Positions 1 through 18,433 of a stretch of 40,197 nt of DNA are shown piece by piece. The position numbers and the translations under genes were made by a program. Below the pieces are notes generated by a model, which was not told the origin of the DNA, did no database searches, and saw only the letters and a list, made by a program, of their open reading frames with translations. Origin of the DNA: an uncultured Chloroflexota bacterium (lineage in GTDB: Bacteria; Chloroflexota; Dehalococcoidia; Lucifugimonadales; GCA-002694895). Numbering within the stretch: position 1 is the first letter of the stretch; each line of letters starts with the position of its first letter. The stretch lies in the NCBI GenBank assembly GCA_950054395.1, contig CATLOZ010000004.1, positions 1 to 40,197 of the forward strand, given 5' to 3'.

Positions 1-83
1 GGCATATGTTTGCTACTTTCTTACTTCAAAAGAATACACATGCTAAAGTTGTGCAAGAATTGCTTAGACATAGCACTCTTTGA
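1..83 (+). pseudogene. Tyrosine recombinase (phage-type integrase) C-terminal remnant
   Basis: The reading frame is open from the window edge to a TGA at 81-83. It encodes a tail containing HMFATFLLQK followed by KVVQELLRHS. This matches the end of tyrosine recombinases, where an (R)HxxAT helix is followed by a KVVQELLGHS-like segment. In the family a catalytic tyrosine follows about 9-10 residues after the HS; here the frame stops two residues after it and no tyrosine follows in this frame. The visible piece is therefore either a truncated gene or a decayed one whose N-terminus lies outside the window. Together with the tRNA fragments nearby it suggests an old integration site. Confidence 0.6.
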
Positions 84-205: not shown

Positions 206-243
206 ATTCAAAGTCCTTCCTGACACCACTACACCACCGGGCA
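206..243 (-). other. 5' tRNA-like fragment (resembles tRNA-Gln UUG), truncated at the anticodon loop
   Basis: Read on the minus strand, the segment starts with TGCCCGG (acceptor-like), continues with TGGTGTAGTGGT (a D-arm consensus) and reaches AGGACTTTGAAT, which resembles an anticodon stem-loop with anticodon TTG. After the loop the sequence no longer complements the 5' stem, the second half of the D-stem pairs poorly, and no T-arm follows. I read it as a degenerate 5' tRNA piece of the kind left by an integrase that recombines in an anticodon loop. A chance resemblance is possible. Confidence 0.35.
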
Positions 244-479: not shown

Positions 480-567
480 AAGTGTCCCATTACACACTTT
501 ATATAACTATAAAAAAGATGCACAAGTTGCACATAGTAAAAAAAAGAAGTGGCACAAATGTCACATA
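480..567. repeat. Three small hairpins with two near-identical 16-mers spaced 32 nt
   Basis: The inverted repeats are AAGTGT (480-485) with ACACTT (494-499), TGCA (519-522) with TGCA (528-531), and GTGGCA (549-554) with TGTCAC (559-564, one G-T pair). The 16-mers at 520-535 and 552-567 match at 13 of 16 positions and are offset by 32 nt, close to three helical turns. This is the usual layout of paired protein-binding sites, but no regulated gene is obvious: the nearest gene (738-2096) points toward them from the opposite side. Confidence 0.35.
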
Positions 568-737
568 TAAAAAAGAAAATATAAAAATTAAAGAAGAAAA
601 TTAAAATGACAAATATTAAAAAAATTATAAGAAAATATAAATATAAGATACGAATTAAATTATCAGATAGAAAAGATAGTAAAAGAATTGAAATATTATT
701 TAAAAAATAATATTAATAAAGAGTAAAGGTTGCAGAT

Positions 738-2096
738 CTAAGAATTTATCTTTGATTTAAAGGGGGTATGTTTTAGAGTTTCTGTGTTTGGATTTTTACA
801 TATTATCATTCTTCTTATTGCTTCTACATTCATAACTACAGCAACAAATATCAATATAAATTTAACCTGATTTAATAAAGCACCCAATAGCATAACAAAT
901 ATACGCATATCTCTTCCAATACGTATGTTTCTTGTGTTTATATAAATTTTCATTAAATTATCATATTTATCTGCTGTATAACTAAGCATAAAAGAACCTG
1001 TAATTGCAAAAAAGCCTATTATTAAATATAAATTTCCACCATCATTAGAATATAGATGCCACGTCAAACCAAACAATAAGAAAGCATCTGCGTAACGATC
1101 CAAAACAGCATCAAACCAACCACCATAACTACTTTCTTGATATTTTAAACGTGCCACTTCTCCGTCACAACCATCGATAATAGATGAAATTTGAGCTAAT
1201 ATTCCTCCTATAATTAATGGGATATATGAGCCCATAGAAAATAAAAGTGAAGCAATGCATGCAACGCTAAATGCAAATATTGAAATTTGATTTGGCGTAA
1301 TATTGGTAACAGATAATTTCTTTGAAATCCAAATAGAAATAGGTCGATTAAAATATCGTGCTATAATTCCATCATGTTGTTTATTCAGATTTTTTAATAC
1401 CTCAGATTCAGCCTTACGATATGATTCCGGATCATTGACATCAGCCCAAAACTTATCATCAATCTTAAAAATGTTAACTTTACTTTTGTCTGCTAGATAT
1501 TGTATTGCATCTGTTAAAAACCCCATGTCTTTTTTTATACATATTTCCAAGGCTTTGAAAATTGAAGGTTTGCAATAAAATATTCCTGTATCAAAGCCAT
1601 CGTATTCTTTTAAATTTTTTCCTATTTTAGTTATTTTATTATTATCAACCTTAACTTTGGTAACACAATTTAGGGCAATCATTGGATTTTTAATTTTTGT
1701 ATCTATTGCCAAAACAACATCAGATTTATTTGATTGTGAAAATAAATTTCTGACTATAGATGGATCAAACAGATGATCTGACATTAATAATAAAAAAGGT
1801 TCCTTTATTTTATCCTTAACACTGAGTACAGAAAAACCATTTGCCCCATTTTCCCATTCAGAATTATAGATAGTATGTATTACTAAACCTGTGTCTTCAC
1901 TTAATTTTTTTAAAATAGCTTCTAAAGGATCTTTTTCATGCCCGGTTACCACAAAAAATTCATTCGCACCAGCCTTTTTAGCTGTACGAATAGTACGTTC
2001 TATTAATGGTAATCCAAGAAAATTAACAAGCGGTTTGCTAGTTCCTTTTTCTTGTAATCTTTCTCCCTTTCCAGCTGCAATTATTACACATTTCAT
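738..2096 (-). CDS. Bifunctional sugar/inositol-phosphate nucleotidyltransferase - CDP-alcohol phosphatidyltransferase (IPCT/DIPPS-like)
   Basis: Two domains are fused in 452 aa. Residues 1 to about 235 form a nucleotidyltransferase with the N-terminal signature IIAAGKGERL and Lys21-Pro. From about 245 to 430 there is a membrane CDP-alcohol phosphatidyltransferase with the full motif D308-x2-D311-G-x2-A315-R316-x8-G325-x3-D329-x3-D333 and several hydrophobic segments. This order and length match the archaeal and bacterial enzymes that make CDP-inositol from inositol-1-phosphate and CTP and then join it to a second inositol-phosphate (di-myo-inositol-phosphate pathway). The exact alcohol substrate cannot be read from the sequence; a phospholipid headgroup role is possible. 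No inositol-phosphate synthase lies nearby. The gene sits alone between integrase and tRNA remnants, suggesting transfer. Confidence 0.8.
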   Translation of the reverse strand: MKCVIIAAGKGERLQEKGTSKPLVNFLGLPLIERTIRTAKKAGANEFFVVTGHEKDPLEAILKKLSEDTGLVIHTIYNSEWENGANGFSVLSVKDKIKEPFLLLMSDHLFDPSIVRNLFSQSNKSDVVLAIDTKIKNPMIALNCVTKVKVDNNKITKIGKNLKEYDGFDTGIFYCKPSIFKALEICIKKDMGFLTDAIQYLADKSKVNIFKIDDKFWADVNDPESYRKAESEVLKNLNKQHDGIIARYFNRPISIWISKKLSVTNITPNQISIFAFSVACIASLLFSMGSYIPLIIGGILAQISSIIDGCDGEVARLKYQESSYGGWFDAVLDRYADAFLLFGLTWHLYSNDGGNLYLIIGFFAITGSFMLSYTADKYDNLMKIYINTRNIRIGRDMRIFVMLLGALLNQVKFILIFVAVVMNVEAIRRMIICKNPNTETLKHTPFKSKINS

Positions 2097-2157
2097 AATA
2101 TTCTTTATATCTTATAAAAAAGTTACTCAAAGCAAAATTACAAACAAGTTACCTTTT

Positions 2158-2170
2158 GTTTCTTAAAATC
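2158..2170 (+). repeat. Direct repeat copy 1 (candidate att core), 13 bp
   Basis: The sequence GTTTCTTAAAATC is identical to 2375-2387. The second copy covers the anticodon loop of the tRNA-Leu(UAA) fragment, so this copy may be the other end of an excised or replaced insertion. The interval between the two copies is only 217 bp. Confidence 0.45.
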
Positions 2171-2374
2171 GTTGACTATGCCACTGTCTGTGATCATAAC
2201 AAATGTAAAAACCAATAATATTCAGTAATATTAGTTAAAAATAACAGATAGATAATTGACTAACTTTGCGTTGGGTTGAAATTAATTAAATTATATTATC
2301 GAGGATTATTAATGATAAATTTAAATAACTAATACCTATATCCTGATTCTATTATATTCCATGCATTCCTGCAA

Positions 2375-2387
2375 GTTTCTTAAAATC
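2375..2387 (+). repeat. Direct repeat copy 2 (candidate att core) spanning the tRNA-Leu anticodon loop
   Basis: It is identical to 2158-2170 and includes the anticodon-loop bases of the tRNA-Leu fragment. Tyrosine recombinases often cross over in an anticodon loop, and such a core repeat flanks the inserted DNA. Confidence 0.45.
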
Positions 2388-2430
2388 TGTTGGTCTTAGG
2401 GTGGTGCGAGTTCAAGCCTTGCCCACTAAG
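2379..2430 (+). tRNA. 3' half of a tRNA-Leu(UAA), 5' half missing
   Basis: The loop CTTAAAA (2379-2385, anticodon TAA at 2381-2383) is followed by a long variable region as in tRNA-Leu. Next comes a T-arm that folds: stem GCGAG (2406-2410), loop TTCAAGC (2411-2417) and stem CTTGC (2418-2422, one G-T pair). About 8 nt of acceptor-like sequence ends it. The bases before the loop do not pair with the 3' side of the anticodon stem, and no D-arm is found upstream. It is therefore a half-tRNA starting at the anticodon loop, not a functional gene. Confidence 0.6.
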
Positions 2431-2532
2431 TAATTGATCTTATAAACTATTTTAATTTTGTTAGTGATTTTAATAATTATTTCTTTATTGCTATATCTTT
2501 ATTTAGAAAAATAAATAATATGATAGAATTTT

Positions 2533-3774
2533 ATGATGAAATTTTTACCTGAAGCATTAAGATCTAGACATTTTAAAATTTATTTTATAGGAAATATTTT
2601 TTCCTATCATGCTGTTCAGATCTTTATTTTTGCAGAATCTTGGATTGTACATGAGTTGAATAAAACACCTGAAGCATTAGGTATGTTAGGTTTATACGCT
2701 TCATTGCCAACAATCATTTTCAATGTATTTGGAGGAGCGGTAGCAGATAGATTTAATAAAAAATTGCTTGTTTCAATGTCTCAGATATTTCAGGCAATAA
2801 TATTTATTATTTTTGCTTATTCTTATGCGAATGGGCATCTTGAATATTGGCATGTTTATATTATTGCTGCAATAATAAGTTTTTCAACTGCTTTTGAATT
2901 ACCTGCAAAAATGTCATATTTCCCATCATTACTTGATAGAACAAATTTATCTAGTGGTGTAGTAGTGGATTTATTTGCATGGCAGGGAACCAGAGTTATT
3001 GCTCCATTGATAGCAGGTTTTATTTTTGCAGTGTATGGTGGAAGCTTTGCTTTACTTTGCTCATCTTTACTTATTTTAATTTTTATTATTTTGTTTAATA
3101 CAACTAAACCTTTATATAATCCTAAAAAACCTATTGATGGAAATCCAATTTCTGATGCATTTGATGGATTGAAATATATATATCAAAACAAACCTATGCT
3201 AGTTTTACTTAGCCTTTCATTTTTAGTTTATTTATCAGGTTATGCTTATTTGAACATGCTGCCATATATTGGAGTACAAATTTTTAAAGTTGGATCAAAA
3301 GGGACAGGTTTATTAATGACTGCAGCTGGTATTGGTTCAGTTTTACCAACAATCATTTTTGCAAAATCAGGAATTCCAAATAAAAGACTAGGAGTTTGTT
3401 TAAGTATGCTATTTTCAGGATTCTTTTTAATTCTTTTTGCCGGATCTTCTATTTTGTATCAATATATACCATTGGCAGCTATTATTATTTTAATTATTGG
3501 TTTTGCAAATTCTTTGTACGCAACCTCAGTGATGAGTGCAATACAGATTCATGTTTCTGAAGAATTCAGAGGTAGAGTTGTAGGTATTTTTATTATGTCT
3601 TTTAGTTTTATGTCTCTTGGGAGTTTATGGGTTGGAACATTGGGAGGATTTTTAGACAAAGTTCTGTTAACTGAACATTTTGGAGTATTAATTTCTTTAA
3701 TGTTTGGAGGTGTTATTTTACTTTTTGCAGGAATAATAATGTATTTATTTAATACTTCTCTTAAAAAAATATAA
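2533..3774 (+). CDS. MFS transporter, EntS-like exporter family
   Basis: This is a 413-aa integral membrane protein with about 12 hydrophobic segments. The N-terminal segment YFIGNIFSYHAVQIF followed by a short loop containing GGAVADRFNKK (near residues 62-74) is the typical TM2-TM3 signature of MFS proteins of the enterobactin-exporter type (MFS_3). The sequence is continuous and of normal family length. The start could be ATG 2533 or the adjacent ATG 2536; no strong ribosome-binding site separates them. It stands alone beside the tRNA-Leu scar and converges with the aminotransferase gene. The substrate cannot be read from the sequence; export of a small molecule or drug is typical for the family. 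Confidence 0.8.
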   Translation: MMKFLPEALRSRHFKIYFIGNIFSYHAVQIFIFAESWIVHELNKTPEALGMLGLYASLPTIIFNVFGGAVADRFNKKLLVSMSQIFQAIIFIIFAYSYANGHLEYWHVYIIAAIISFSTAFELPAKMSYFPSLLDRTNLSSGVVVDLFAWQGTRVIAPLIAGFIFAVYGGSFALLCSSLLILIFIILFNTTKPLYNPKKPIDGNPISDAFDGLKYIYQNKPMLVLLSLSFLVYLSGYAYLNMLPYIGVQIFKVGSKGTGLLMTAAGIGSVLPTIIFAKSGIPNKRLGVCLSMLFSGFFLILFAGSSILYQYIPLAAIIILIIGFANSLYATSVMSAIQIHVSEEFRGRVVGIFIMSFSFMSLGSLWVGTLGGFLDKVLLTEHFGVLISLMFGGVILLFAGIIMYLFNTSLKKI

Positions 3775-18314: not shown

Positions 18315-18413
18315 TTTATTCTCCGTTAATGCAGTTTCTTTTATACATTATAATACTTTTTATAATTAATTGTTAAGAGATTAATTTAGTGTCATAATAC
18401 CTATATAATATTT

Positions 18414-18419
18414 TACTTA
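18414..18419 (+). promoter_or_regulatory. Possible -10 element for the NHL-repeat gene
   Basis: TATAAT sits 14 nt before a GGAGG ribosome-binding site. The -35 position (18391-18396, TTAATT) matches TTGACA at only three bases, so the call rests on the -10 box and position, in AT-rich sequence where chance matches are common. Confidence 0.3.
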
Positions 18420-18433
18420 TTTGGAGGTAATAG

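What the first reader, a model, noticed from the sequence alone, without database searches (positions are those of the whole stretch)
2158..2430. Half tRNA-Leu(UAA) starting at the anticodon loop with a repeated 13-bp core
The 3' half of a tRNA-Leu is present while its 5' half is absent. The 13 bp spanning its anticodon loop recur exactly 217 bp upstream. This is the footprint expected of a tyrosine recombinase that crosses over in the anticodon loop. The short distance between cores suggests that a larger insertion was lost or that tandem sites remain.
Basis: partly seen in the sequence, partly recalled or inferred. Interest (0 to 1): 0.6.

Follow-up and report, generated by a model that had tools for sequence, protein, structure and literature searches.

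The report
Orphan tRNA-Leu half beside an inserted gene
The half tRNA is real: it is a worn attachment site left where a DNA-integrating enzyme cuts tRNA genes in the anticodon loop, and in related bacteria the same kind of half-tRNA separates a row of small gene inserts, like spacers between beads on a string.

Summary
Confirmed: window 2379-2430 is a 3' half of tRNA-Leu(UAA) starting at the anticodon loop (85% to genus copies), with no 5' half. The 13-mer occurs only at 2158 and 2375 in the 1.26-Mb MAG. The host has an intact, non-identical tRNA-Leu(UAA) elsewhere. A same-genus genome gives the empty site: about 1.75 kb (an IPCT-DIPPS gene plus the half) was inserted between tRNA-Gln and an MFS gene. 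In a second relative the same gene and leader (81% DNA identity over 302 bp) sit elsewhere, beside a more decayed half. That genome also carries, downstream of intact tRNA-Leu(UAA), a tandem array of four more halves separated by small cargo units without integrase. Across the order, halves cut at the anticodon loop recur, and a tyrosine-integrase family lies beside such sites. The two-core reading does not: the 217-bp spacer is the leader of the IPCT gene, and its second core is absent in the relative. The window also holds an integrase C-terminus and an orphan 5' half of tRNA-Gln(UUG). Best class: a new variant of tRNA-targeting tandem genomic islands (integrase-less mini-units).

The parts
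3..80 (+). C-terminal fragment of a tyrosine recombinase (HMFATFLLQKNTHAKVVQELLRHSTL, then stop), lacking the catalytic Tyr; the contig begins inside it
   Evidence: PF00589 positions 134-158, E 0.045
206..243 (-). orphan 5' half of tRNA-Gln(UUG), nt 1-38, cut just after the anticodon loop; matching upstream sequence to 263-268
   Evidence: 92% to host tRNA-Gln(UUG) at G000:C40:292-362
564..717 (.). left flank of the insertion, conserved in the empty site G002:C56 (82%) and at G001:C19:918-1066 (90%)
738..2096 (-). inserted cargo: bifunctional IPCT-DIPPS (inositol-phosphate cytidylyltransferase / CDP-inositol phosphotransferase); below the curated cut-off of the equivalog model
   Evidence: NF041135, E 3e-89, 300 bits, cut-off 580; 85% aa to G001:C24:194952-196256
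2097..2378 (-). 5' leader of the cargo gene, conserved in G001 (81% over 302 bp), homology ending at the half's core
2158..2170 (+). upstream copy of the 13-mer; inside the leader, not conserved in G001, probably coincidental
2375..2387 (+). 13-mer at the start of the half: GTTT of the leader plus CTTAAAATC, the anticodon-loop core
2379..2430 (+). orphan, degenerate 3' half of tRNA-Leu(UAA) = displaced attachment site
2431..2477 (.). sequence absent from the empty site, possible remnant of the older unit to which the half belonged
   Evidence: inference
2533..3774 (+). MFS transporter, right flank; ortholog (89% aa) is next to tRNA-Gln in the empty site G002:C56

Best explanation
The half is a worn attachment site (core plus 3' half) of tRNA-targeting integrative DNA. 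A tyrosine recombinase crosses over in the anticodon loop (core CTTAAAA with its stem bases). Incoming DNA carries its own 3' half, rebuilds the tRNA and displaces the old half to the far side. Repeated events leave tandem units of cargo separated by halves, and halves no longer in use decay. In this genus many units are 0.5-1.8 kb, carry one or a few genes and no integrase, so they would have to be moved in trans. In the window, an IPCT-DIPPS gene with its leader abuts such a core at a non-tRNA-Leu site; the unit that owned this half has almost vanished. Shown: the half, the insertion relative to G002, the homologous unit in G001, the tandem array, and the anticodon-loop breakpoints with their linkage to an integrase family. 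Inferred: trans-mobilisation, the order of events, and that this integrase family moved these units.
For: Same-genus array G001:C33/C24: intact Leu(GAG)-Cys-Leu(UAA), then TM2, half, GNAT, half, DUF2779, half, lipoprotein and M55 peptidase, half (C24 end and C33 start overlap by 55 identical nt). Empty site G002:C56 has SDR, tRNA-Gln, MFS, without IPCT or half. The IPCT leader is homologous up to the core, with a decayed half in G001 (9.7 bits, E 5.5e-4 in 200 bp). Halves starting exactly at CTTAAAATC occur in other families of the order, often 0.6-3.5 kb from intact Leu(UAA). A full-length integrase (PF14659+PF00589) lies 124 bp from a Leu half, and 26 of 30 integrase loci examined have a tRNA or tRNA fragment within 500 bp of the integrase's 3' end, nearly all at about 85-170 bp. 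Cargo families recur beside such sites: TM2 (G001, G067, G145), a 190-aa family (G002, G067, G145), GNAT (G001, G002, 80% aa).
Against: No half or core is detectable at the IPCT 3' end in either genome, so one boundary of the insertion is unexplained. No member of the integrase family was found in the five genus genomes at E 1e-40, which are 65-89% complete; the other tyrosine recombinases looked at there appear to be chromosomal Xer proteins or contamination. Genomes are MAGs, and several relevant contigs end at or near the tRNA-Leu(UAA) gene or a half.
Confidence: 0.78

Rival explanations
1. Ordinary decayed genomic islands: larger autonomous elements integrated in turn at tRNA genes and then lost most of their genes including the integrase; the small units are remnants, not mobile cassettes. 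(This shares the attachment-site reading of the half and differs only on what the units are.)
For: Integrase remnants lie next to intact tRNA-Leu(UAA) in G051 and G069, and an integrase C-terminus at window 3-80. Halves decay. G228 has an element with primase and full integrase at the site.
Against: Units in G001 are compact with open reading frames of ordinary length; stop codons lie 8-123 bp from the preceding tRNA or half. The same cargo families recur beside such sites in different genera, unexpected for random deletion.
Confidence: 0.35
2. One reading: two 13-bp cores 217 bp apart bound a lost or tandem insertion.
For: The 13-mer occurs exactly twice in the genome; P about 0.002 by simulation.
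Against: The spacer is continuous, conserved leader in G001, where the upstream core is absent.
Confidence: 0.05
3. A functional split tRNA made from separate halves.
For: A 3' half of Leu and a 5' half of Gln lie 2 kb apart in one window.
Against: The halves belong to different tRNAs; both are degenerate; intact Leu(UAA) and Gln(UUG) genes exist. Trans-splicing of tRNA halves is known from archaea, not bacteria (own knowledge).
Confidence: 0.01
4. Pseudogene left by segmental duplication of the host tRNA-Leu, no recombinase involved.
For: Similarity to tRNA-Leu(UAA).
Against: Breakpoints cluster in the anticodon stem-loop in 38 of 39 3' fragments across many tRNAs and families; linked integrases; the half is not closest to the host's own gene.
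Confidence: 0.04

Closest known systems
tRNA-targeting genomic islands with anticodon-centred att sites (Islander survey, PMC4383910)
   Same: Intact tRNA plus displaced fragment mark the ends; tyrosine recombinase; anticodon-centred sites are about half of the survey (2083 of 3919); 5' fragments occur (159).
   Different: Survey requires an integrase and at least 2 kb per island and lists only 4 tandems of three or more; here units are often below 2 kb and integrase-free, and one array holds four halves beyond the intact gene.
Dehalococcoides ssrA genomic islands (PMC3146451), same bacterial class
   Same: Several tandem islands downstream of one RNA gene, each bounded by a copy of its 3' end; 15 islands lack the integration module.
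   Different: Target is tmRNA with a 20-bp repeat, and the recombinase is of the serine (CcrB-like) family.
Additive flexible islands of 'Ca. Methylopumilus' (PMC10872708)
   Same: Repeated 3' end of a tRNA (tRNA-Lys) precedes variable inserts of 330 bp-42 kb with 1-63 genes.
   Different: Repeat is the last 20 nt, not the half from the anticodon loop; unrelated host.
Tycheposons (as described in PMC10872708)
   Same: tRNA-bordered cargo elements with a tyrosine recombinase in aquatic bacteria.
   Different: Large (4-200 kb) with their own recombinase.
Integron gene cassettes (own knowledge)
   Same: Tandem small gene units separated by recombination sites (works like).
   Different: No IntI or attC shown; the site is a tRNA half; units carry long leaders.

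Membership tests
tRNA-targeting tyrosine-recombinase islands (anticodon site) | displaced tRNA fragment beginning or ending in the anticodon stem-loop | tested here: met
   window halves nt 32-77 and 1-38; population of breakpoints
tRNA-targeting tyrosine-recombinase islands (anticodon site) | regenerated intact tRNA at the other end of the same element | tested here: inconclusive
   Met for the G001 array and for G067, G069, G051. For the window's Leu half no intact tRNA adjoins; for Gln the intact gene is on contig C40
tRNA-targeting tyrosine-recombinase islands (anticodon site) | integrase within the element | tested here: not met
   None in the window's IPCT unit or the G001 array; only a truncated C-terminus at 3-80 next to Gln
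Integron cassette array | IntI integrase and attC sites | not tested
   No model for IntI or attC was run; the repeated site is a tRNA half
Integron cassette array | tandem small units each with a recombination site | tested here: met
   G001:C33/C24
Dehalococcoides ssrA island | ssrA 3' end as repeat | tested here: not met
   the repeat is tRNA-Leu(UAA) 3' half

The most novel reading that the evidence does not exclude
An integron-like cassette economy built on tRNA halves: small, integrase-less gene units carrying core plus 3' half are moved in trans between anticodon-loop sites of tRNA-Leu(UAA), Leu(CAA) and other tRNAs across families of this Dehalococcoidia order, drawing on a shared cargo pool (TM2, a 190-aa family, GNAT, DUF2779, IPCT-DIPPS).
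Probability: 0.35. Interest if true: 0.68.

Novelty: new variant of a known kind. Interest (0 to 1): 0.45.

Why it matters
Sub-2-kb, integrase-free units fall below the filters of the tRNA-island survey read here, so a route by which small-genome bacteria gain single genes may be largely uncounted. The displaced tRNA half gives an easy marker with which to count them, and the integrase family with its sites makes the mechanism directly testable.

Tried and rejected
Rfam scan of the first 4 kb found nothing. Viral contigs hold no exact genus half and only one remote integrase relative. Phage records hold only relatives below 60% identity (35% for the best listed). A search for a second half at the IPCT 3' end found none. 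TM2 relatives in many genomes have no tRNA fragment within 1.5 kb, so TM2 is not exclusively such cargo. The breakpoint sample is biased because many of its loci were fetched for carrying the half or the integrase; a less biased comparison set, IPCT loci from other phyla (542 kb), still held four tRNA fragments. The tRNA library was drawn from the loci themselves. Defence-system models gave only weak or partial hits to cargo.

Full report
Observation. Window 2379-2424 matches tRNA-Leu(UAA) nt 32-77 at 85%, and no intact tRNA lies in the window. The host's intact tRNA-Leu(UAA) is at G000:C22:22-104, beside Cys and Leu(GAG), and is only 86% identical to the half over 35 nt. The half is therefore real but not a recent copy of the host gene.

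Surroundings. Window 3-80 is the C-terminus of a tyrosine recombinase, cut short before the catalytic tyrosine. Window 206-243 (-) is a 5' half of tRNA-Gln(UUG) ending just after the anticodon loop. The host's intact tRNA-Gln(UUG) lies on contig C40 next to an SDR gene. In relative G002 the order is SDR, intact tRNA-Gln, a short conserved stretch, MFS. So in G000 the Gln locus is split. The simplest reading is that an element integrated in the anticodon loop, brought a new 5' half and upstream sequence (C40), and left the old 5' half in the window. This is inferred, since the contigs are not joined. The same pattern is clear on one contig in G041: integrase, intact tRNA-Thr(CGU), and an orphan 5' fragment (nt 1-41, 97.6%) 14.6 kb away.

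Empty site. G002 has neither IPCT-DIPPS nor a Leu half between the short conserved stretch and MFS; aligned to it, the window carries about 1.75 kb extra, from about 717 to about 2475. In G001 (JAPYRX010000001.1, Dehalococcoidia MAG) the same gene (85% aa) sits elsewhere. Its leader is 81% identical over 302 bp and homology stops at the core. A decayed Leu half follows in G001 (nhmmer 9.7 bits, E 5.5e-4 in the 200-bp orthologous stretch). The leader runs uninterrupted through the place of the upstream 13-mer, where G001 has no core. That removes the two-core reading.

Array. In G001, downstream of intact Leu(GAG)-Cys-Leu(UAA), come TM2 protein, half, GNAT, half, DUF2779 protein, half, lipoprotein plus M55 peptidase, half. 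The last unit crosses contigs C33 and C24, which overlap by 55 identical bases. The first three cargo ORFs are antisense to the tRNA, with stops 44, 123 and 8 bp from the preceding tRNA or half and leaders of about 155-203 bp up to the next core. No integrase lies in the array. PF00589 hits in the genus are one to three per genome; those examined look like chromosomal Xer-type genes or contaminants. G002:C25 carries a half followed by a GNAT 80% identical to the G001 one. G000:C35 begins inside another half.

Order-wide. A pattern search of 250 genomes of the order found Leu(UAA) 3' halves beginning at CTTAAAATC in several other families, often 0.6-3.5 kb from an intact copy. Intervening genes include TM2 (G067, about 0.6 kb), HigB-like toxin with an HTH partner (G224), methyltransferases (G164), and a staphylococcal-nuclease homologue (G039). 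G145 has a comparable array at tRNA-Leu(CAA). In all fetched loci, 38 of 39 orphan 3' fragments start at nt 22-33 and all five 5' fragments end at nt 38-42. A full-length integrase in G228 lies 124 bp from a Leu half. Of 30 loci of this family examined (the G228 locus included), 26 have a tRNA or fragment within 500 bp of the integrase's 3' end, nearly all at about 85-170 bp; the tRNAs include Leu, Lys, Thr, Pro, Arg, Glu, Gly, Trp and Ser. Integrase remnants lie beside intact Leu(UAA) in G051 and G069.

Cargo pool. TM2 proteins lie beside such sites in G001, G067 and G145 (and near tRNA-Leu in G240 and G241); a 190-aa family in G002, G067 and G145; GNAT in G001 and G002; DUF2779 proteins in G001 and G000:C35, though only 27% identical.

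Mechanism. Shown: anticodon-loop halves, insertion relative to G002, tandem units, integrase linkage. Inferred: each unit carries core plus 3' half, integration rebuilds the tRNA, and older halves are displaced and decay; units without integrase are moved in trans. By this polarity the window's half belongs to an older unit that is now nearly gone, and the IPCT unit should have its own half at the other end. None was found there in either genome; this is the main gap.

Comparison. Islander (PMC4383910) describes tRNA islands with anticodon-centred sites, requires an integrase and at least 2 kb, and reports only four tandems of three or more in 2168 genomes. Dehalococcoides ssrA islands (PMC3146451) are tandem and partly integrase-free but use a serine recombinase at tmRNA. 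Methylopumilus additive islands (PMC10872708) show repeated 20-nt tRNA-Lys ends with inserts from 330 bp. The present case fits this kind; the integrase-less mini-units bounded by anticodon-loop halves are the variant.

Noticed in passing
window 3-80 and 206-243; G000:C40 (L078:1-362): Integrase C-terminus and orphan 5' half of tRNA-Gln(UUG) in the window, intact Gln on C40: a 5'-half-restoring insertion, which would have to bring the tRNA's promoter.
   Followed up: partly
L316:3755-3795 and 18349-18423 (G041): 14.6-kb stretch with intact tRNA-Thr(CGU) beside an integrase and an orphan 5' fragment (nt 1-41) at the far end.
   Followed up: partly
L035:1528-1567 (G000:C57): Orphan 5' fragment (nt 1-40, 100%) of tRNA-Gln(CUG) in the host genome.
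   Followed up: no
L324:4584-4761 (G220): tRNA-Val 5' fragment and tRNA-Lys 3' fragment about 90 bp apart, with Leu halves nearby: mixed tRNA halves in one region.
   Followed up: no
L242:6517-6561 (G001:C24): tRNA-Gly(CCC)-like 3' half (nt 31-75, 80%) about 2 kb beyond the last Leu half of the array.
   Followed up: no
L103:2799-2858; L134:8418-8467: tRNA halves within a few kb of IPCT-DIPPS genes in other phyla.
   Followed up: no
L241/L259:122-173 (G110, another family): Leu half identical over 52 nt to the genus type (G003/G004), followed by a lipoprotein gene: transfer between families or contamination.
   Followed up: no
window 606-710; L174:955-1059: 34-codon basic ORF in a stretch with 90% DNA identity, near tRNA-Gln in G000 and tRNA-Ala in G001; frame broken in G002.
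   Followed up: no
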